Part shown: piece by piece, positions 3,857 to 13,371 of the stretch | Layout of the letters: each line of letters begins with the position of its first letter | How positions within the stretch are numbered: the first letter of the stretch is position 1 | NCBI GenBank assembly: GCA_015075625.1 | Contig: JABTTZ010000001.1 | Span: forward strand, 372,001 to 436,000 | DNA from: Anaerolineales bacterium | GTDB taxonomy: Bacteria; Chloroflexota; Anaerolineae; Aggregatilineales; UBA2796 | Reading direction: 5' to 3' | Length of the DNA stretch: 64,000 nucleotides | Position numbers and translations under genes: made by a program | The notes under the pieces: model-generated | Databases searched by the model: none | What the model saw: the letters and a program-made list of their open reading frames with translations, nothing else | Told to the model about the DNA's origin: nothing

Positions 3857-4867
3857 TCAGCTTAATGAGCGAATATAAGCAATGATGTACAGAATCTGAT
3901 CATCCGTCAGAGCGGGATTGCCGCCTTTGGGAGGCATATCAATCCCGGTTGTGTTGAGTGGATCCCAGATCGGGCGTCCGGCTTTGATGAAGGTTAACAG
4001 GTCCGCATCGGATGATCTCGCCACAAACTCGCTGGCAATAAGGTCTTTACCCAGATTGGGAATACCTTTCGCATTGGACCCATGACAGGCGGCACAAGCC
4101 GTGAACAGTTTTTCGCCTTCAGTCACAAGGGCTGAATCATAGGCAGGGTCCGTTTCAGTATCAGTTGCAGGTACCGCACTTTCAGTTTGAGCGGACAAAC
4201 TGCGAATGAAGGCGATGATAGCGAGGATATCGTCATCACTTAGCGCCGGATTGCCACCCTTGGGCGGCATATCAATCCCGGTTGTGTTGAGTGGATCCCA
4301 GATTGGGCGTCCGGTTTTGATGAAGGTTAACAGGTCCGCATCGGATGATCTCGCCACAAGCTCGCTGGCAATAAGGTCTTTACCCAGATTGGGAATACCT
4401 TTCGCATTGGACCCATGGCAAGCGCTGCAAGCACCAAAAAGCTGCTCCCCTTTGGTCACCAGAGCCGGATCATAAGTGCTGCTGCCCCCGCCAGTGCCGT
4501 CTGCCTGCGCGATTGCTGTTGGGGTGAGGTTGCTGCTCACAGGGGATATGGACGTCAGGGTGGGGAGAGGGGTACTGGTTGGAGGCGGGGTTGAGGTCGC
4601 AGTAGGTACGGGTGTATTGGTCGGTAGGGGGGTAGGGGTTACCGTTGGGATTGGTGTGCTGGTGGGAATAAGGGTGGGGGTGGATGTCTGCGCTACCCAA
4701 ACCACTACCGAGCCTCTGTTAACGCCATCGGGCTGAGACTGCATTAATCCAACCAGAATCAAAACACCGATGATCACTAGATTGCTGGCAAAGATCAAAC
4801 TGAAAAGAACAGGATGCAGTGATGCCGTTTTATGTGTGTGATGCTCCACGAAAACTTTCTCCCTCAT
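3857..4867 (-). CDS. Membrane-anchored di-haem cytochrome c of the nos cluster
   Basis: A 336-residue protein: a transmembrane anchor (about 17-42), a Pro/Thr-rich linker (about 61-118) and two class I cytochrome c domains. The haem sites are CSACH at 147-151 and CAACH at 258-262, with axial methionines likely at 200 and 311 in IDMPPKGG. The two domains are almost copies, 111 residues apart. It probably passes electrons to NosZ on the outside of the membrane, the job of NosC cytochromes in clade II operons. It follows the lipoprotein gene after about 50 bases. A GTG at 4849 with AGGGAG nine bases upstream may be the true start, since the ATG at 4867 has no ribosome site. Confidence 0.85.
   Translation of the reverse strand: MREKVFVEHHTHKTASLHPVLFSLIFASNLVIIGVLILVGLMQSQPDGVNRGSVVVWVAQTSTPTLIPTSTPIPTVTPTPLPTNTPVPTATSTPPPTSTPLPTLTSISPVSSNLTPTAIAQADGTGGGSSTYDPALVTKGEQLFGACSACHGSNAKGIPNLGKDLIASELVARSSDADLLTFIKTGRPIWDPLNTTGIDMPPKGGNPALSDDDILAIIAFIRSLSAQTESAVPATDTETDPAYDSALVTEGEKLFTACAACHGSNAKGIPNLGKDLIASEFVARSSDADLLTFIKAGRPIWDPLNTTGIDMPPKGGNPALTDDQILYIIAYIRSLS
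3918..4421 (-). repeat. 333-bp-period near-identical duplication inside the cytochrome gene
   Basis: Bases 3918-4088 and 4251-4421 are nearly the same, with about eight differences across some 170 bases, most of them at third codon positions. Each copy covers the stretch from just after the haem motif to the axial methionine. The flanking parts of the two haem domains are clearly more diverged. This points to a recent gene-conversion event or a recent domain duplication. Confidence 0.9.
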
Positions 4868-4915: not shown

Positions 4916-5665
4916 TCAGGGCATGACCACGTCCTGATCAAAAGTGCGCTCCGCGTGTGTTCCATCGGGACGGGTCACATTAACCACGACTTGCCAATCA
5001 CCAGCCATTGACCATTGCAGTGAGACCTGATACTGCCCCTCACCCATATGTTTACCCTCCCCCGTGATCGGCATCATGCCCTCATGGAGCATGTTCCCTG
5101 TCACCTTCACCATCGCATTAGTGACAGGTGCGCCGTCAGGGCCGGTCACGGTGATGATCACTATCCCACTACCCACAAGGGCAGGGCTGCGATCAGGGCT
5201 GTAGGCGATGTTCAGGGCAGAAAAGTCTGAGGCGGGGGTGCCCGTAGCACGCCGAATGATACTCTCGCTGGAGACAGCTTCAACCGTGAAAGAGAAATCC
5301 CGGCTAATCTTCGAGCCATCGGGCAGTGTGGCGGTGATAGTCACGAACCACCCCCCACCCATCGTCCATTCAAAGGGGATGCGGTACACACCCTTAAGGC
5401 TCTCGTGGGACTCGCCGTCAACCGGAGCCATGCCCGCATGATCCATATTTCCATGAGCTTGGATCAACATGCCGTCGATGGGTGTTCCCTGCGCATCCTT
5501 TAAGGTTACGATCAGTTCAGAGTCTCCTACCGCGGGTGGCTCCGGTTCAGCCCTCACGGATAAGTCCACTTTCGAGGGGGTGATAGTGGGAGAAGCGGCT
5601 CCGGCACATGCACTCATCACAAACAGACACAGCACCATAGCCAACAGCATTCGGAAGGAAGTCAT
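4916..5665 (-). CDS. Lipoprotein with two FixH/YtkA-like Met/His-rich domains (possible copper carrier)
   Basis: The 249-residue protein starts with a signal peptide ending in a lipobox-like MSAC (Cys20), so it should be lipid-anchored outside the membrane. Two beta-sandwich repeats follow, roughly 33-130 and 150-249. Each carries a Met/His cluster: HGNMDHAGMAP at 71-81 and GNMLHEGMMP at 190-199, with HMGEG nearby. YtkA/FixH- and CopC-type domains are small extracytoplasmic folds that often handle metals. The gene overlaps nosY by four bases and precedes the cytochrome. It occupies the place where many nos clusters carry nosL, and no NosL is seen in the window. Copper delivery to NosZ is therefore a reasonable inference, but it is unproven. 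Confidence 0.7.
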   Translation of the reverse strand: MTSFRMLLAMVLCLFVMSACAGAASPTITPSKVDLSVRAEPEPPAVGDSELIVTLKDAQGTPIDGMLIQAHGNMDHAGMAPVDGESHESLKGVYRIPFEWTMGGGWFVTITATLPDGSKISRDFSFTVEAVSSESIIRRATGTPASDFSALNIAYSPDRSPALVGSGIVIITVTGPDGAPVTNAMVKVTGNMLHEGMMPITGEGKHMGEGQYQVSLQWSMAGDWQVVVNVTRPDGTHAERTFDQDVVMP

Positions 5666-6522
5666 AAATTTCCTCTGCCTCTTTGAATCAACCGCTCCTC
5701 ACGCCCAAAGAGGATCATTCCCCCCATCAAAGGAATGATGATCCACAGCAGTAAGCCGCTGATGAGCATGGGGAGGAGAAGCTTGCCAAAATGATCGGTA
5801 GCATACACCCCCGCAGGCCCTAGTACTTCTAAGTTTGCTTGGAGTACGAGGATGGAGGCGATCTTAAATACCTGAAGGGGATTCAGGATCGCAATCGCAA
5901 AGACGGTTTCAATAGGCATCTGGGTAGATGTGGCTGTGCCCATGATGCCCAGATCGCCGATAAACACCAGAAACAGCCACAGGAATAACGCCCCACCCAA
6001 GGCCGCAGCAGTACGCTGGGTAATGCTGGAGAGCAAAAAGCCCAAACTCAGCATCGCCAAGGCCAGCAGGTACGCCAGCAGTACCATAAACAGATAACCG
6101 CCAGCATCCTGAATCCCGCCTTGGAGCGAGAGCACCACCCCGGCCACTCCAAATCCGAGGCTGAGGGTGGCAAGGAGTGCGCCCGCCATGCCCAAAAATT
6201 TGCCAAGGATGACTTCCACCCGGTTGATAGGCTGCGAAAGTAAATACATCAGTACGCCTGTCTCCCGGTCTCCAGCGAGATTCGCAGCCCCCAACGTTAA
6301 CCCGATCAGCGGTACAAATAGCAGCACCAGATTGATCAGGCTGGCGGCGGTACGGCTGTAACTGGCCACACGAAGGTTCATTCCGCCGGGCTGAGTTAAC
6401 GTTGAAAGCACCAGTGCCAGCCCTGCAAAAGCGATGGTAAACACCAAAAACCATCGGTTATGTAGGGCGTCGCGCAGCTCTTTTTCCGCCATGGTGCGGA
6501 TATTGGCAAGGTCAATCATCAT
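5662..6522 (-). CDS. nosY: NosY, ABC-2 type permease of the NosDFY copper-site maturation system
   Basis: About 286 residues with six predicted membrane spans, a cytoplasmic N-terminus containing AEKELRDALHNRW, and the ABC-2 features seen in NosY proteins (GDRETGVLMYLLSQPINR after the second span). NosY and NosF form the transporter that works with periplasmic NosD in assembling the CuZ centre of NosZ. I place the start at 6522 or 6519: twin ATG codons follow GGGGG at good spacing and overlap the nosF stop. The longer in-frame version from 6546 has no ribosome site. The stop overlaps the start of the lipoprotein gene. Operon position and partner genes make the assignment firm. Confidence 0.9.
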   Translation of the reverse strand: MMIDLANIRTMAEKELRDALHNRWFLVFTIAFAGLALVLSTLTQPGGMNLRVASYSRTAASLINLVLLFVPLIGLTLGAANLAGDRETGVLMYLLSQPINRVEVILGKFLGMAGALLATLSLGFGVAGVVLSLQGGIQDAGGYLFMVLLAYLLALAMLSLGFLLSSITQRTAAALGGALFLWLFLVFIGDLGIMGTATSTQMPIETVFAIAILNPLQVFKIASILVLQANLEVLGPAGVYATDHFGKLLLPMLISGLLLWIIIPLMGGMILFGREERLIQRGRGNL

Positions 6523-7396
6523 TTTCCCCCAGTAACAGCAGTTCACCGTCGATCAGATCAAAATCCTCTACGGGAATTTGCATTGATTCCAGAAGGCGCA
6601 AGGGGGCAACCTTACCACTCAAGCTGACTTGCACGTACACACTGTGCCCATTGGGCATAAAGCGGTATCCCTGTTCACTCAGAACATTCAGGGTTTGAGC
6701 TTTGTGCTGTGCCGAAATCCAAATGCGCAGCCAGCGATGCAGCCCCAAGCGAGGCGCAAGTTCATGTGGGGCACAATCCAGAACCAACTTGCCTTCGTCC
6801 AGCACTAACACCCGACTGCCCAATGCTATAACCTCATCCAAGCGGTGTGATGAGAACACAATGGTCTTGCCGGACTGATTCAGGCTTTGGATCATGTGGA
6901 TGAAATCCCGCTGTGCTTTGACATCAAGGCTAGCCGTGGGTTCATCCAGCACCAGCACAGGCGGATCGGAGAGAAGTCCCACTGCCAGCGCCAGACGCTG
7001 CTTCATGCCCCCGGAGAGCATGTGGACTCGTTTGGCCTTGTGGGGCGATAAGTGCACCTGAGTGAGCACCTCATCGATCCGCTTCACCGAAGCTTTTTTA
7101 AGACGGGCACAAAAATACAAGGTTTCTACGACGGTCAGGTCATAAAAGGCAGTTTCTTGGGGAACATAACCGATGGCGGCCCGTGCAGCCTTGCCCTGTT
7201 TACGCACATCGATACCATTCACGGTCAGCTCGCCCTCAAATCCATGCACCCCTAACAGACAGCGAAGGGTGGTGGTTTTTCCTGCACCGTTTGCGCCCCA
7301 CAAGGCAACGGACTCGCCCGCTTTGATGGTGAAAGAGACTTCATGCAGGGCAGCATGTTTGCGGTAACGTTTGGTCAGATTTTTGGCGATGATCAT
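6512..7396 (-). CDS. nosF: NosF, ABC transporter ATPase
   Basis: This 294-residue ATPase has Walker A GANGAGKT (34-41), a Q-loop in IGYVPQ, the LSGGMKQR signature, Walker B VLVLDEP, and the switch histidine in FSSHR. A C-terminal extension of about 80 residues after the nucleotide-binding domain is usual in this subfamily. It powers NosY during NosZ maturation. Its ATG overlaps the nosD stop by four bases, and its stop overlaps the twin start of nosY, so nosD-nosF-nosY should be co-translated. Confidence 0.93.
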   Translation of the reverse strand: MIIAKNLTKRYRKHAALHEVSFTIKAGESVALWGANGAGKTTTLRCLLGVHGFEGELTVNGIDVRKQGKAARAAIGYVPQETAFYDLTVVETLYFCARLKKASVKRIDEVLTQVHLSPHKAKRVHMLSGGMKQRLALAVGLLSDPPVLVLDEPTASLDVKAQRDFIHMIQSLNQSGKTIVFSSHRLDEVIALGSRVLVLDEGKLVLDCAPHELAPRLGLHRWLRIWISAQHKAQTLNVLSEQGYRFMPNGHSVYVQVSLSGKVAPLRLLESMQIPVEDFDLIDGELLLLGENDD

Positions 7397-8877
7397 GTCA
7401 GGGGTACTTTCTGCTCAGTTTTAGGCATAGGTTCTGACGCGGCTAAAGTTCTCCTGATAGAAGACAGTGCCCGGTTACGCAGCGCCGAGAGACACACCAG
7501 TGCTCCAATCCCCAATAACAGCCCTGTACCAGCCAGTAAGGAAAACGTCATTCCCTGTCCGGGTGAGTCGATCTGGACGGGGACGCTGTATTTCATCAGA
7601 GGGGCTTCGTCGATGACCTTAGGATCAGGACGTAAGGAAGGAAACGCTGCTGCCGCAAAGTCAATGGCTTGGCTTGCTGGGCTGAAGGTAAAAAGGCGTA
7701 GTACAGGGTTGTTGTCGGAGATGCTCTCAAAGAGCTTTTCGGCGCGGTAGGGCATATCCCCCACCCCGTCACCATCCCGGTCATAACCTACATAGTTGCT
7801 CCAGTAGTTGCCGATGCCGTCTTGACTCCAAGCGTTTCCCAGAAGGTTACCACGACCCTGAACACTCACCTGTTGGTAGTTTTCGAGGAAGGTGTTGTTC
7901 TGGAAAATATTTCGCTTCACCGAGGGCAGGCCGGTCAAGCCGATATCATTGTAGGCAATGAAGTTCTGGCTGAAATAATTGTGGGAATCATAAAGGGAGG
8001 GTGAGTTATCCAAAAAAATGGCCACTGCATTGCCTATAAAGACGTTTTCAAAAACCCGCACCTGATCCATATCCTTGAGGGCAACACCGTAACCGCTTGC
8101 CCCTCGGTTATGGATGATCCGGTTGCGGCTCAGGGTTAGTCCCGCCGAATACATCATGTAAGCGCCGACGGCGTTTTCCTCAATTCGGTTGTCCTCCACC
8201 ACTGCATCCTTGTTGTACATAAAATGCAGTCCATAACGGTTATGGTGGATGTAATTCTGGCGAATGAGGATATTGTTGGCATACCAGATAAGGATGTCAC
8301 GCCCGCTGGTGATCTCATTGCCGATCAAACTCACATCATGGCTGTACCAAACCCGGATGCCGTCGCCCCGGATACTCTCCTCAAGGGGTTTGCCCCTGAT
8401 AACATTGTTCTGAGCAATCCCTTGAGGGGCATCGGCAAAATAGATCCCAAACAAGACATCTTCAAGCAGGTTATCGGCAACAGTAACCTGTGGGGACTGA
8501 ATCACGATCCCCGTATCTTCGTGAGGCAGGCTGTGACCGCTGTTCCGCACGATGAATCCCTGAAAGATGACACGGGGGGCGTTGATCAGCACGAGACTGC
8601 CTATGCCGCGACCGTCGATCACCGGTTGATCGATCCCGATCAGGGAGATCGATTTCTCGATCACTAACGGCGCGACATATACACCACCGTGAACTTCAAT
8701 CACGTCACCATTATGGGCAGCTACAAGAGCTGCTTCGATGGTGGGGTAAGCTCCACCCGGAGCCACGATCAGGGTGGTTTGTGCCCGAACTGTGATCAGG
8801 GGTATCGCCATCCACATGAGCAGGCTGATCAGCACAGCGGGGCGGTAGATTCGTCGAGTACAGCAGGTTGGTTTCAT
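7393..8877 (-). CDS. nosD: NosD, extracytoplasmic copper-site maturation protein
   Basis: A 494-residue protein with an N-terminal signal peptide, then a right-handed parallel beta-helix recognisable by its repeated short turns (N-x-I-x-x-N and similar) from about residue 45 to 400. NosD proteins of this type feed the tetranuclear CuZ site of N2O reductase together with NosFY. A hydrophobic segment near the C-terminus (about 448-468) followed by basic residues suggests that this NosD is anchored in the membrane rather than free. It starts ten bases after the nosB-like gene and overlaps nosF. Confidence 0.92.
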   Translation of the reverse strand: MKPTCCTRRIYRPAVLISLLMWMAIPLITVRAQTTLIVAPGGAYPTIEAALVAAHNGDVIEVHGGVYVAPLVIEKSISLIGIDQPVIDGRGIGSLVLINAPRVIFQGFIVRNSGHSLPHEDTGIVIQSPQVTVADNLLEDVLFGIYFADAPQGIAQNNVIRGKPLEESIRGDGIRVWYSHDVSLIGNEITSGRDILIWYANNILIRQNYIHHNRYGLHFMYNKDAVVEDNRIEENAVGAYMMYSAGLTLSRNRIIHNRGASGYGVALKDMDQVRVFENVFIGNAVAIFLDNSPSLYDSHNYFSQNFIAYNDIGLTGLPSVKRNIFQNNTFLENYQQVSVQGRGNLLGNAWSQDGIGNYWSNYVGYDRDGDGVGDMPYRAEKLFESISDNNPVLRLFTFSPASQAIDFAAAAFPSLRPDPKVIDEAPLMKYSVPVQIDSPGQGMTFSLLAGTGLLLGIGALVCLSALRNRALSSIRRTLAASEPMPKTEQKVPLT

Positions 8878-8887
8878 AGAGGCTGCC

Positions 8888-9559
8888 TCAGCCTGAAGTG
8901 CGTGCCCGTCGCTGAGCGAAGCGAAGGACAGCCGCCAGTACGATCAGGGCACTGCCCAGTACGATCAGATACCAACCCACATCAACATTGGCAACAGTCT
9001 TAAACTGACCGATGACTCCCTCACCGAGGATTGGCGGGGTGAAAGGACGAATAGCGCTAGAAAGCGGCGCATAGGGATCGAGGTTCTGCCCATAGTGGTT
9101 CATCCAAAACGCTAGATCGGCAAGGTAAATGAAGGGGAACAGCAGGGCTGGTATAGTCAACAACCACGTCCAGCGCCGCCGCCAAAATGCCGCCACAATC
9201 AGTAGGATGATCATCACAACCATCCCCGGGATGGCGATGGAGCGTTCTAGCTGTGCAGCGTCATAGAGAGACTTCATGCCGATGTAATGGTTTAGCCCGT
9301 CAATTTCCCGAACTTCGTCCAGTTTGGGATCATCGTCTCCAGTGATATAGTTCACAAATACCCGCATCTGAAGCCCACCGGGGTATTGAGGTGCCTGCAA
9401 GATCAGTCCCCAGTAGGGGAAAGCAGTGGAGACGATCATCAACACTGCCGCGCTCAGGTACAGGACTGGTGGTAACCACTTTAGCCAATGACGGGAAGCG
9501 CCAGTAGTAGTATTCTGTGCAGCGCTTGAATTGGAGGAGGAAAGTATATTTGCAGCCAT
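8888..9559 (-). CDS. nosB: NosB-like multi-span membrane protein
   Basis: About 223 residues with four or five predicted membrane spans and no enzyme motif. It sits directly between nosZ and nosD, the position of nosB in clade II nos operons such as those of Wolinella-type bacteria. NosB proteins are poorly characterised membrane proteins thought to support NosZ function. I prefer the ATG at 9559, preceded by AGAGG at six bases, over the longer frame from 9589. A Ser/Asn-rich cytoplasmic tail (about 5-22) precedes the first span. The assignment is by position and topology; sequence identity to known NosB could not be tested. Confidence 0.7.
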   Translation of the reverse strand: MAANILSSSNSSAAQNTTTGASRHWLKWLPPVLYLSAAVLMIVSTAFPYWGLILQAPQYPGGLQMRVFVNYITGDDDPKLDEVREIDGLNHYIGMKSLYDAAQLERSIAIPGMVVMIILLIVAAFWRRRWTWLLTIPALLFPFIYLADLAFWMNHYGQNLDPYAPLSSAIRPFTPPILGEGVIGQFKTVANVDVGWYLIVLGSALIVLAAVLRFAQRRARTSG

Positions 9560-9643
9560 ATTGAACCTCTGTGATCTGGTTATGCGCATGATGAGGGGTA
9601 GTGGGGCAGTTATCCCACCCCACCATCCCTCAATGGCTGACCA

Positions 9644-11635
9644 TCACTCAGGCTTCACCATCATGTAACCCATCATTTCGAGATGGAGTGCTGAGCAGAA
9701 CTCAGTGCAGTAGAAGCTGAACACACCTGCGTGGGTCGCTTCAAACTCAAAGGTGATCGATTCTCCCGGCTCAATACTCAGGTTGATATTGTAGAAGGGG
9801 ATTGCAAAGCCGTGGGTAGCGTCACGGGCACGCTCCACATTGGTGATCGTCCAAGTAACATGATCGCCCACCTGAATCTCGACATGCTCAGGAGTCATGT
9901 GGCTGCGAACGGCGGTCATGCGCACAGTTACGTTCTTACCGTCGCGGGTTATACCTTCGGTGCCTTGGGTGACTGCTCTGGGATCAACCGTCTGGGTCGC
10001 CGGGTTCCAGCCTACTTCAGGGTAGACTTCCCACGCATTAAGCTTATCTGCTTTGATGATCTGGGCATAGTGTGGTTCTGCGCCGGTGATAGGCATATCG
10101 AATAGAATCTGAGTCTTGTCACCCGGCTGCGAAATGTCGATCAACTGTAGATTTTGGGGCAGCAGTGGGCCCGTGCTGAGGAAACGATCCACTGACCACT
10201 TGTTGAGCGCGACTAAAAAGCGCCCGTCAGGAGTTGCGGTATCGCCTTCAGCAGCGGCAAGATGCCCCACGTTGTACTGAACAGGGGTCTTATTGATCAG
10301 CTTCCAGCCATCCTGCGGACGATAACCTTCTGCGCCGATGCTCCAGCGTGCTACAGCGCTGTCCAAGAACAGACTGGTATAGGCATAGCCCTGATCGTCA
10401 TAAACGGTGTGCAGCGGTCCAAGTCCCAGTTCAACCTGAACCTCCATCACGCTTTCGAGCGACAGAACGGGTACTCCAAAAGCATCCTTCTCTGTGGGTC
10501 CAGCGGCGATAGCGGCCATCATCTTGGCGAAACTGTAGACGGTCACATGGGGGTCAAGTTTGCCACCGACGACGATGAAATCGCCTTTGGGGGTCACATC
10601 CGCGCCGTGAGGGCTGCGGGGTTCTGGGGCAAGGTATAGCAGTCCAGCTTCAATCGATTTTTCGAGGGGGATGACTTTAAAGCCTTTGACATCCACAACA
10701 CCACCTGCTTGGAAGACTGCCTCCGCAGCCTTCAGGTTGATCATATGCAGGTAGTCTACCGCGCCACGACTCACGCCCGCTTCAAAAGGAGGATTGCCTT
10801 TTTCGATACCGCCAGTCGCCATTTCCGCATTGAAAGAATTGCAGAACACCCAACCTTCGGAGACGGACTTGCCCGAATCGCACAAATCCTGCCAGTAGGG
10901 AGGAAGTTCCATGGCGAACGACTTGCTCATATCAATACGCCCAGTCTCGCGATCAAACTTCCAGAATGTGATCATCCCGCTGTAGGCATCTTTGTAGTTT
11001 TCGATGGGGGCGTAGGTTCCACCGAGGGGTAGACCATACTGACCACCCTCAACGATGTATTCAGTGTTGGGGGTGACAAAGGTGCCCCCATGATCGTTCA
11101 AGAAAGCGGGGTTGTGAACGATCTGTTTGGTCTCAAAGTCACGCAGGTCAATAACCGCAACGCGCCCATTGGCTTTATCACCAATGAACAGCCACTGACC
11201 ATCATATTCGCCGTTGGTTTCGCTCAGTGCCGGGTGATGGGTGTCACCCCAGCGGATTTCCTTACCATCGATGTTACCCTGATCAAGGATTTCATTCCCC
11301 GCCCCATACCCATAACCTTGCCACGATTCCGGGGTGAAAACGGAGATCAACCGCAGCAGGCGCATGGAGGGCATTCCAATCGCTAGCATCTGACCACCCT
11401 GACCAGCAGAAGCGAACATCACGTATTCATCCATCATACCGCTGGGGGTATAGGTCATCACCGCAGCACGCAGGTCGGCTTCGGTAAGACCACGCTGTGC
11501 CATAATGGACTGCCAATCAGTGGAACCATCTTGGGCGTTCGTGGTGATCATCTTCGGTGCTACTACTCCCAAAAGCAGCGCCACCATAATCACAACGATG
11601 AATAGAGATTTCAGTGAAAGCCGGAGTTTAATCAT
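9644..11635 (-). CDS. nosZ: Nitrous oxide reductase, Sec-exported clade II type
   Basis: The 663-residue enzyme reduces N2O to N2 outside the cytoplasmic membrane. The N-terminus (about 1-35) is a Sec signal peptide with no twin-arginine motif, a hallmark of clade II NosZ. A beta-propeller carries the CuZ ligands, with DHGGTF visible near residue 180. The C-terminal cupredoxin domain has the CuA motif CTEFCSALHLEMMGYM (C-x3-C-x3-H-x2-M) and an upstream HGF histidine. Length and domain order are normal and nothing is truncated. It heads the operon nosZ-nosB-nosD-nosF-nosY. A GAGAGG ribosome site lies ten bases before the ATG. Regulation by the adjacent Crp/Fnr proteins is likely (see the site at 11750). 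Confidence 0.97.
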   Translation of the reverse strand: MIKLRLSLKSLFIVVIMVALLLGVVAPKMITTNAQDGSTDWQSIMAQRGLTEADLRAAVMTYTPSGMMDEYVMFASAGQGGQMLAIGMPSMRLLRLISVFTPESWQGYGYGAGNEILDQGNIDGKEIRWGDTHHPALSETNGEYDGQWLFIGDKANGRVAVIDLRDFETKQIVHNPAFLNDHGGTFVTPNTEYIVEGGQYGLPLGGTYAPIENYKDAYSGMITFWKFDRETGRIDMSKSFAMELPPYWQDLCDSGKSVSEGWVFCNSFNAEMATGGIEKGNPPFEAGVSRGAVDYLHMINLKAAEAVFQAGGVVDVKGFKVIPLEKSIEAGLLYLAPEPRSPHGADVTPKGDFIVVGGKLDPHVTVYSFAKMMAAIAAGPTEKDAFGVPVLSLESVMEVQVELGLGPLHTVYDDQGYAYTSLFLDSAVARWSIGAEGYRPQDGWKLINKTPVQYNVGHLAAAEGDTATPDGRFLVALNKWSVDRFLSTGPLLPQNLQLIDISQPGDKTQILFDMPITGAEPHYAQIIKADKLNAWEVYPEVGWNPATQTVDPRAVTQGTEGITRDGKNVTVRMTAVRSHMTPEHVEIQVGDHVTWTITNVERARDATHGFAIPFYNINLSIEPGESITFEFEATHAGVFSFYCTEFCSALHLEMMGYMMVKPE

Positions 11636-11788: not shown

Positions 11789-12487
11789 TCAGCGGGCTTC
11801 GTGCAGGGCGATTTGGCGCAGTTTATCGAGGTTATACAGGAGAATCAAGGTGCGGGTAACTTGGATCAATCCCTCAGCCTCAAACTTCCGAAAGGTACGA
11901 TAGACAACTTCGCGGGCAGTGCCGACCATATCAGCATATTCTTGTTGTGAGAGCAGGCGTTCAATGCCGATTCCCCCTTCGTAGGGTCGTCCTTCCGCCT
12001 CAGCCCGCGCTAGCAGCACCATCGCCAGACGCGAAGTCACATCACGAAAGGCGAGATCATGTACAAGGATGACGAATTGTTTAAGTTTATCGGTGATCAG
12101 GCGCAAAAAAAGCTCTTGGAAATCGGGCAGTTCGTCCAGCAGAACTCTCAGATTCCCCGGTGGCAGGAAGAGGACTTGTACAGGGGAAAGGGTGGTAGCA
12201 GCATAGGGACTGGGGGTATCTGTGGGCAGGGATTCCGCACCTAAGCACTGTCCCGGCACAAGCAGGGCCAATATCTGGCATTTGTCCTTTGAATGCCGGT
12301 AAAGCTTGACGTGCCCCCTCTGGAGTAGATATAGCCCTGTAGGTGGATCTTCCTGCTGATACAGATCAAGATGGGCTTCATAGCTCAGTTCCACTGCCTT
12401 TTCAGCAAGACAGCGCTGGGTGCGTGGGCTGAGCGCCTGAAGGAGAGGAATGGCTAAAAGCTGCTCTAGGCTCACCATCGGGGACAC
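11789..12487 (-). CDS. Crp/Fnr-family transcription regulator (proximal to nosZ)
   Basis: A 232-residue regulator: a cyclic-nucleotide-binding beta-roll (about 25-120), a dimerisation helix, and a C-terminal winged helix with the recognition region SQQEYADMVGTAREVVYRTF (about 175-195). The N-terminus shows no clustered cysteines of the FNR 4Fe-4S type, so it is more like the haem/NO-sensing or nucleotide-independent branches (DNR, Dnr-like) than FNR itself. It lies upstream of nosZ in the same direction, 150 bases away, with a perfect TGTGA-N6-TCACA box between them and another before its own start. Control of N2O respiration is the likely role. Confidence 0.85.
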   Translation of the reverse strand: MSPMVSLEQLLAIPLLQALSPRTQRCLAEKAVELSYEAHLDLYQQEDPPTGLYLLQRGHVKLYRHSKDKCQILALLVPGQCLGAESLPTDTPSPYAATTLSPVQVLFLPPGNLRVLLDELPDFQELFLRLITDKLKQFVILVHDLAFRDVTSRLAMVLLARAEAEGRPYEGGIGIERLLSQQEYADMVGTAREVVYRTFRKFEAEGLIQVTRTLILLYNLDKLRQIALHEAR

Positions 12488-12544
12488 ATTTCATCAACAT
12501 CAGGGCGATATGTAATCAGGGTAAGCCTTTTGGGATGAACAGAA

Positions 12545-12560
12545 TGTGACTTAAATCACG
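12545..12560. promoter_or_regulatory. CRP-type operator before the proximal Crp/Fnr gene
   Basis: TGTGACTTAAATCACG is one mismatch from TGTGA-N6-TCACA. It lies about 60 bases before the start at 12487 and overlaps the stop codon of the upstream Crp/Fnr gene, which suggests auto- or cross-regulation between the two regulators. Confidence 0.6.
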
Positions 12561-13275
12561 CCTCGTGAGGTAAGGGGCTTTTCTTCTGATCATCACAGGC
12601 ACAGGGAGGCATAAGCGCGTTGAGGTTGAGGATCGTAATATGACCCGGCTCGCTGTGGATGATGCCTTCCTTTTCCAAATGATTAAGGTGCCGTGTGACC
12701 ACTTCTCGCACGGTTCCTGAGAGTGCGGCCAGCCTCTCGTGGGTCAGTTCCACAGTTGGTTGGGGGGTGGAGCGGTTGGCATAGGTAAGCAGGCAGTCGT
12801 TGATGCGGTCGGGCACAGTCCATGCGCCTAATATCTCGCTCACTTTGGCGAGGTGCGTTAAGCGCTGACTGTAGATGTGCAGCAGCACTTTAACCAGTTG
12901 AGGTTTGCACACCTTCACTTGCTGAAGCCCGGATTCGGGGAGGAGAAAAAGGGTGACATGATCCAGTGCCTGCGCGGTAGCCGGGTTACTGTTCATATCA
13001 AAGAGGGGGCAGCTTCCAAAACACTTCCCTTGATCCATCACACACAGTCCCTGAATCCGTCCATTGAACGACTGTTTGATAATCTTGACTCGCCCCTCAA
13101 AGACGAACCAGAGCGAACCGGCTATCTCGCCCTCGGTGAAAATGACCTGACCGGGCATGTAACTCTGGCGCACCATTGATGACGCCAAAAGGGCTAACTG
13201 CTCCATTGGCATATCCCGAAAAGCCGGCAAGCTTCTTACCTCGGCAACCTTTACCGGGAAACGATCAAGTGCCAT
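12556..13275 (-). CDS. Crp/Fnr-family transcription regulator (distal)
   Basis: About 239 residues with the same cNMP-binding plus winged-helix layout as its neighbour; the recognition helix lies in LAALSGTVREVVTRHLNHLE. The sensory domain holds three cysteines close together (GLCVMDQGKCFGSCPLF), and the C-terminus ends in a PCACDD stretch. These could bind a metal or cluster, but that is speculative. The ATG at 13275 is preferred; the longer frame would need a TTG at 13311 without a ribosome site. The two regulators are diverged paralogues in tandem, read toward nosZ. Confidence 0.83.
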   Translation of the reverse strand: MALDRFPVKVAEVRSLPAFRDMPMEQLALLASSMVRQSYMPGQVIFTEGEIAGSLWFVFEGRVKIIKQSFNGRIQGLCVMDQGKCFGSCPLFDMNSNPATAQALDHVTLFLLPESGLQQVKVCKPQLVKVLLHIYSQRLTHLAKVSEILGAWTVPDRINDCLLTYANRSTPQPTVELTHERLAALSGTVREVVTRHLNHLEKEGIIHSEPGHITILNLNALMPPCACDDQKKSPLPHEA

Positions 13276-13371
13276 ATACTCCAAAATTTGTGCTCCGTTT
13301 GAATAGGTCAATTATACTGCCAAACACAGTTCAGAACAATCCGCTCGCAGAGGTCCTTGTCCACAGGGAGA

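What the first reader, a model, noticed from the sequence alone, without database searches (positions are those of the whole stretch)
4916..5665. Met/His-rich lipoprotein in the nosL position
The nos operon here has no visible nosL. In its place is a lipoprotein with two domains, each with GNMxHxGMxP-type Met/His clusters. Copper delivery to NosZ is a natural role for it, which would make it a separate kind of copper chaperone for clade II systems.
Basis: partly seen in the sequence, partly recalled or inferred. Interest (0 to 1): 0.62.

Follow-up and report, generated by a model that had tools for sequence, protein, structure and literature searches.

The report
YtkA-type lipoprotein replacing NosL
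In one group of Chloroflexota bacteria, the operon for the enzyme that destroys the greenhouse gas N2O carries a two-domain membrane-tethered protein of a known copper-handling family (YtkA/CtaK) where relatives carry the usual copper chaperone NosL, so it probably took over or supports copper loading of that enzyme.

Summary
Window 4916-5665(-) encodes a 249-aa lipoprotein with two YtkA domains (PF13115), in a clade II nos operon, directly after nosY. It is not a new protein kind: YtkA/CtaK is a known copper-handling lipoprotein family required for CuA assembly in Bacillus subtilis caa3 oxidase, and a 2026 paper already notes a YtkA protein replacing NosL in Geobacillus thermodenitrificans.

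The genome (98.5% complete) has no NosL. In its order (Aggregatilineales), 28 nos clusters have a readable slot. It holds tandem YtkA in 13, single YtkA in 7, YtkA-cupredoxin plus SCO in 2, cupredoxin plus SCO in 5, and NosL in 1. Elsewhere in the class, 52 of 52 clusters carry NosL, and in three of these NosL is fused to two YtkA domains. A Met/His set (M74, H76, M79, M102; repeated as M192, H194, M197, M220) is nearly invariant. The nearest solved fold is Helicobacter pylori CrdA (Z 13.4), a copper-binding protein also solved with silver.

Best reading: a NosZ-dedicated extracytoplasmic copper chaperone that displaced NosL. Whether it serves CuZ or CuA is open. Copper binding itself was not tested. 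The claim "for clade II systems" is too broad.

The parts
4916..5665 (-). Tandem YtkA-domain lipoprotein (249 aa), in the NosL slot
   Evidence: ORF, PF13115 in two stretches, lipobox Cys20, purifying selection; start overlaps the nosY stop by 4 bases
5264..5605 (-). YtkA domain 1 (residues 21-134); putative Cu(I) ligands M74, H76, M79, M102
   Evidence: conservation; fold, pLDDT 88.8, pTM 0.79; CrdA Z 13.4
4919..5212 (-). YtkA domain 2 (about residues 152-249); putative ligands M192, H194, M197, M220
5662..6546 (-). nosY, ABC permease
   Evidence: PF12679; synteny
6512..7396 (-). nosF, ABC ATPase
   Evidence: PF00005; synteny
7393..8877 (-). nosD, periplasmic beta-helix maturation protein with C-terminal hydrophobic segment
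   Evidence: TIGR04247, 411 bits, cut-off 300
8888..9589 (-). Membrane protein in the position of clade II nosB (name from position and general knowledge; no family match)
9644..11635 (-). nosZ, Sec-dependent (clade II) nitrous oxide reductase
   Evidence: TIGR04246, 812.7 bits, cut-off 625
3857..4867 (-). Diheme cytochrome c, conserved last gene of the cluster
11789..13311 (-). Two Crp/Fnr-type regulators upstream of nosZ, conserved in the order

Best explanation
The protein is a membrane-tethered, extracytoplasmic copper chaperone dedicated to maturation of NosZ. It belongs to the YtkA/CtaK family and displaced NosL on the branch leading to the Aggregatilineales nos clusters. Shown: two YtkA domains predicted as Ig-like sandwiches, a nearly invariant Met3-His set in each, placement in the NosL slot of a conserved operon, absence of NosL, and natural NosL-(YtkA)2 fusions in sister lineages. 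Inferred: each domain holds one Cu(I) between the M-x-H-x-G-M loop and the W-x-M turn, and passes it on at the membrane, either to NosD of NosDFY (CuZ route, as NosL does) or to the CuA domain of NosZ (as CtaK does with SCO for caa3 oxidase). I put roughly 0.4 on the CuZ/NosD route, 0.3 on CuA, and the rest on both or neither.
For: No NosL in the own genome. In the order, 22 of 28 readable nos clusters have YtkA in the slot, and none of these genomes has a full-length NosL; the weak hits in G452 and G474 are half-profile matches inside DNA-binding regulators. Elsewhere in the class, 52 of 52 clusters with nosY held have NosL in the same slot, and three of these are NosL-(YtkA)2 fusions. The NosZ tree puts all YtkA and cupredoxin clusters in one clade (SH-aLRT 100); the YtkA state needs two changes. 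The nos-linked domain 1 (20 of 21 copies, support 96) and domain 2 (13 of 13, support 99) form their own clades, so this is an inherited nos-dedicated subfamily. A second YtkA, one SCO and a caa3-type oxidase with a CuA motif lie elsewhere in the genome, so the nos copy is not the only one available to the oxidase. Family function: CtaK is needed for CuA assembly with Sco (PMC13344008, PMC9145763). Fold: H. pylori CrdA, Z 13.4, 1.8 A over 96 residues, next group 11.6; HMM E 7.1e-6 aligns M54, M59 and M82 with CrdA Met69, Met75 and Met99 (residues named in PMC9182242). Copper-assembly neighbours: YtkA-PCuAC fusions and YtkA beside SCO.
Against: No copper binding was measured and no coordinates were available to check ligand geometry. 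The replacement is phylogenetically one main event, so co-occurrence counts are not independent. Some nos clusters (G305, G378, family f34) have neither NosL nor YtkA, so an empty slot is tolerated and occupancy alone does not prove function. Single-domain versions are common, so two domains are not essential.
Confidence: 0.68

Rival explanations
1. It is purely a CuA assembly factor for NosZ (a CtaK relocated to the nos operon). CuZ copper comes through NosDFY from an unspecific pool, so the protein does not do NosL's job. (This is a sub-branch of the best explanation, so the confidences overlap.)
For: CtaK acts with Sco on CuA. SCO sits in the nos cluster beside YtkA-cupredoxin (L177 3760-5159) and beside the cupredoxin in family f94. 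YtkA-PCuAC fusions exist. In Paracoccus, SenC2 and PCuAC affect N2O reduction and are linked to NosZ CuA, with NosL for CuZ (PMC7558416).
Against: It stands exactly where NosL stands and NosL is gone. Without it, no dedicated copper donor to NosD would remain. Most YtkA clusters have no SCO in the operon.
Confidence: 0.3
2. It is a periplasmic copper buffer or resistance protein (CrdA/CopC-like), co-expressed with nos but not delivering copper to NosZ.
For: Closest solved fold is the copper resistance determinant CrdA; some YtkA domains are fused to CopC-CopD (L133).
Against: Conserved operon position and start/stop overlap with nosY; a nos-specific subfamily; NosL-YtkA fusions in nos operons.
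Confidence: 0.12
3. The Met/His loops are a structural feature of an Ig-like lipoprotein that scaffolds NosZ, cytochrome c or NosDFY, with no metal function.
For: Ig-like folds commonly serve in adhesion; many unrelated Ig matches.
Against: The Met and His are among the few nearly invariant residues over 63 copies. A B. subtilis CtaK His118Tyr mutant loses oxidase activity and is rescued by copper (PMC9145763).
Confidence: 0.08

Closest known systems
YtkA/CtaK (PF13115), B. subtilis lipoprotein for cytochrome caa3 CuA assembly
   Same: Same Pfam family, lipoprotein, conserved Met and His
   Different: CtaK acts on the oxidase; this one has two domains and lies in a nos operon without NosL
YtkA-domain protein in the nos cluster of Geobacillus thermodenitrificans (noted in PMC13068155, citing Liu et al. 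2008)
   Same: YtkA protein in place of NosL in a nos cluster
   Different: Different phylum (Bacillota). Here tandem domains, an order-wide distribution and NosL-YtkA fusions are documented. Domain number of the Geobacillus protein was not checked
NosL (PF05573), Cu(I) chaperone for CuZ
   Same: Lipoprotein, same operon slot, inferred copper delivery to NosZ
   Different: Unrelated fold, no NosL domain, no CxM motif (mature protein has only the lipobox Cys)
H. pylori CrdA (9ll2 apo, 9ll4 with silver)
   Same: Same Ig-like fold (Z 13.4); Met loop aligned
   Different: CrdA has no His, is a single domain and serves copper resistance
PCuAC and SCO1/SenC
   Same: Copper insertion into CuA; found fused to or beside YtkA in this order
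   Different: Different families; neither is in the window's nos cluster

Membership tests
YtkA-like (PF13115) | Profile match over the curated cut-off | tested here: met
   75.6 bits vs 25.9, two stretches
YtkA-like (PF13115) | Conserved Met/His set | tested here: met
   M74, H76, M79, M102 invariant in 20 nos-linked copies; M54, M82 invariant and H56, M59 at least 90% in 63 domains
YtkA-like (PF13115) | Copper binding | not testable with these tools
   Needs purified protein
CtaK orthologue (oxidase CuA factor) | Single-domain protein serving the caa3 oxidase | tested here: not met
   Two domains, in the nos operon, in its own nos subfamily clade; another single YtkA lies elsewhere in the genome
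NosL | NosL domain PF05573 | tested here: not met
   No NosL match to this protein or anywhere in the genome
NosL | Position after nosY in the nos operon, lipoprotein | tested here: met
NosL | CxM copper motif | tested here: not met
   Only two Cys in the precursor, in the signal peptide and lipobox
CcoH/FixH (PF05751) | Profile match over the cut-off | tested here: not met
   22.4 bits vs 23, just below
CopC (PF04234) | Profile match over the cut-off | tested here: not met
   16.3 bits vs 23.3
PCuAC (PF04314) | Profile match | tested here: not met
   Absent from the window protein; present in fused relatives
CrdA-like fold | Fold agreement well above background | tested here: met
   Z 13.4 and 13.0 versus 11.6 for the next group; HMM E 7.1e-6

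The most novel reading that the evidence does not exclude
A NosL-free NosZ assembly pathway in which a tandem YtkA lipoprotein hands Cu(I) to NosD for the CuZ cluster, with one domain possibly also filling CuA. It would have arisen when a NosL-(YtkA)2 fusion or a NosL plus YtkA pair lost its NosL part.
Probability: 0.3. Interest if true: 0.62.

Novelty: new variant of a known kind. Interest (0 to 1): 0.45.

Why it matters
NosZ is the main known N2O-destroying enzyme and its activity is limited by copper supply. A whole order that keeps NosDFY and NosZ but swaps NosL for YtkA, YtkA-cupredoxin plus SCO, or cupredoxin plus SCO is a natural experiment on what NosL does and which copper site each chaperone serves. 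It also warns that scoring nosL as a required gene would wrongly call these organisms incomplete N2O reducers.

Tried and rejected
A NosL hidden elsewhere in the genome: none by Pfam profile. Weak NosL hits in four order genomes: half-profile matches inside DeoR-like DNA-binding proteins, not lipoproteins. Two-domain fold search against the PDB: generic Ig matches with rmsd of mostly 13-18 A (8.8 A at best in the list), uninformative, so domain 1 was folded alone. Link of the paralogue (C2:744376) to oxidase genes: its neighbours are not oxidase genes. Stand-alone YtkA in nos clusters outside the order: none in 52 class clusters and none in the phylum sample. The apparent Planctomycete hit L177 is a contig 100% identical over 2613 bases to an Anaerolineae MAG and is treated as misbinned. 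No plasmid match.

Full report
What is there. The minus-strand ORF 5665..4916 encodes 249 aa with a signal peptide and lipobox ending at Cys20. Pfam assigns two YtkA-like stretches (PF13115, 75.6 bits against a cut-off of 25.9). The two domains are 32% identical over 91 aa. The gene starts inside the last four bases of nosY and is followed by a diheme cytochrome c. Upstream are nosF, nosD, a membrane protein in the nosB position, and a Sec-type nosZ (TIGR04246, 812.7 bits). Against the same-genus homologue it shows dN 0.216 and dS 1.31, so it is a real gene under purifying selection. It evolves faster than NosZ.

NosL is missing. The genome (4.68 Mb, 98.5% complete) has no match to PF05573, while the control genomes B. 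subtilis and Haloferax volcanii rang. It has three YtkA matches: two in this gene and one single-domain gene on another contig. It also has one SCO and a caa3-type oxidase subunit II with a CuA motif (CAELCGVGHAAM, read). The oxidase therefore has other candidate factors in the genome.

Distribution. The order is Aggregatilineales (Anaerolineae, Chloroflexota), judged from record titles. In it 30 of 154 genomes have nosZ. Reading the slot around nosY and the cytochrome gives tandem YtkA in 13 and single YtkA in 7 (one, G449, frameshifted). YtkA fused to a small cupredoxin with SCO next to it occurs in 2 (contiguous on L177), cupredoxin plus SCO in 5 (family f94), NosL in 1 (G549), and two clusters end at contig ends. 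The f94 cupredoxin is 56-57% identical to the cupredoxin part of the fusion. Full-length NosL occurs only in G549. The other weak hits are DeoR-like regulators carrying a NosL-like segment.

Outside the order. A class-wide sample gave 82 nosZ genomes among 396. Of the clusters outside the order that still hold nosY, 52 of 52 carry NosL in the same slot and none carries stand-alone YtkA. Three of them, from three families, carry a lipoprotein with a NosL domain followed by two YtkA stretches (L229 8104-9321, L237 2899-4542, L245 2232-3497; Pfam). This fusion is the strongest single link between the domain pair and NosZ maturation. In a phylum sample 18 of 29 nosZ genomes have NosL, and some have neither NosL nor nos-linked YtkA, so the slot can be empty.

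History. In a NosZ tree all order rows other than G549 form one clade with support 100, and the YtkA state needs two changes, most simply one gain and one loss in f94. In a tree of 74 domains the nos-linked first domains (20 of 21) and second domains (13 of 13) each form a supported clade (96, 99). The tandem form is therefore old in these operons and single-domain forms most likely lost domain 2. G479 is an exception whose nos copy groups with a non-nos single. The domain tree is short (114 columns) and many forks are open.

Structure and site. AlphaFold gives two Ig-like sandwiches (pLDDT 88.1, pTM 0.46 for the whole; 88.8 and 0.79 for domain 1). Domain 1 matches H. pylori CrdA, solved apo (9ll2) and with silver (9ll4): Z 13.4, 1.8 A over 96 residues, above the next matches at 11.6. 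The sequence profile agrees (E 7.1e-6). In that alignment M54, M59 and M82 (domain numbering; M74, M79, M102 in the protein) fall on CrdA Met69, Met75 and Met99, and H56 lies next to Met72. Those four Met residues, with Met78, are the cluster named in PMC9182242. My mapping rests on the HMM alignment, not on coordinates.

Mechanism. B. subtilis CtaK is a lipoprotein with conserved His and Met. Its loss impairs CuA formation in caa3 oxidase, is rescued by copper, and is placed in one pathway with Sco (PMC9145763, PMC13344008). NosL serves CuZ: delta-nosL NosZ keeps CuA and loses CuZ, though under copper limitation both centres fail (PMC6530538). In Paracoccus, SenC2 and PCuAC deletions reduce N2O reduction at low copper and are linked to NosZ CuA (PMC7558416). 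In this order YtkA is found fused to PCuAC, beside SCO, and beside SCO inside two nos operons. These facts support copper delivery to NosZ in general. Position and NosL loss favour the CuZ route; family function and SCO neighbours favour CuA. I cannot separate them here.

Novelty. A 2026 paper on Parageobacillus lipoproteins states that in G. thermodenitrificans NosL is replaced by a YtkA-domain copper delivery protein (PMC13068155). The idea is therefore already in print for Bacillota. I found no description of the Chloroflexota case, the tandem form, the NosL-(YtkA)2 fusion or the YtkA-cupredoxin plus SCO variant in the searches made. The library lacks most subscription papers, so absence there is weak evidence.

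Noticed in passing
L101:9170-11518, L102, L103, L104, L105:8267-10627, L111:4890-7256, L116:2728-5046, L062, L063, L065, L069 and many class loci: NosD and NosF are one polypeptide: beta-helix, a hydrophobic segment, then the ABC ATPase. Such fusions are widespread in Chloroflexota nos clusters.
   Followed up: partly
L206:1394-1984(-), L207:1280-1843(-), L208:1117-1749(-), L209:978-1685(-): DeoR-like helix-turn-helix proteins with a C-terminal NosL-like, Cys/His-containing segment: possible copper or metal-sensing regulators.
   Followed up: partly
L124:6235-8156, L126, L144, L146:7013-8953, L147, L148, L156, L157, L158: Non-nos single YtkA lipoproteins sit beside a conserved ~500-aa NapH/NosR-type polyferredoxin membrane protein (family-checked on L124, L126, L146, L157), reminiscent of the FixG-FixH pair.
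   Followed up: partly
L131, L132, L134, L138, L155 and related loci: YtkA domains fused to PCuAC, a CuA copper chaperone (Pfam-confirmed on L132).
   Followed up: partly
L101:7960-8400, L105:7074-7481, L141:6152-6874: A small cupredoxin-like protein with no Pfam or NCBIfam match takes the NosL slot in family f94 and is fused to YtkA in two other genomes; it could be an electron carrier or a copper carrier.
   Followed up: partly
L053:5236-5592 (family f34), L057 (G378): nos clusters with neither NosL nor YtkA; f34 has a cupredoxin lipoprotein between nosZ and nosD, and G378 has no recognised accessory gene after nosY.
   Followed up: no
L177 (JAPKGU010000025.1): A contig filed under a Phycisphaerales MAG carries an Aggregatilineales nos operon with 2613 bases identical to an Anaerolineae MAG: likely misbinning.
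   Followed up: yes
window 11789-13311 and homologous loci: A pair of Crp/Fnr-type regulators lies upstream of nosZ in nearly all nos clusters of the order.
   Followed up: no
L109:7969-8589 (G449): The nos-linked single YtkA gene is frameshifted or carries a deletion; it may be an assembly error in a MAG.
   Followed up: no
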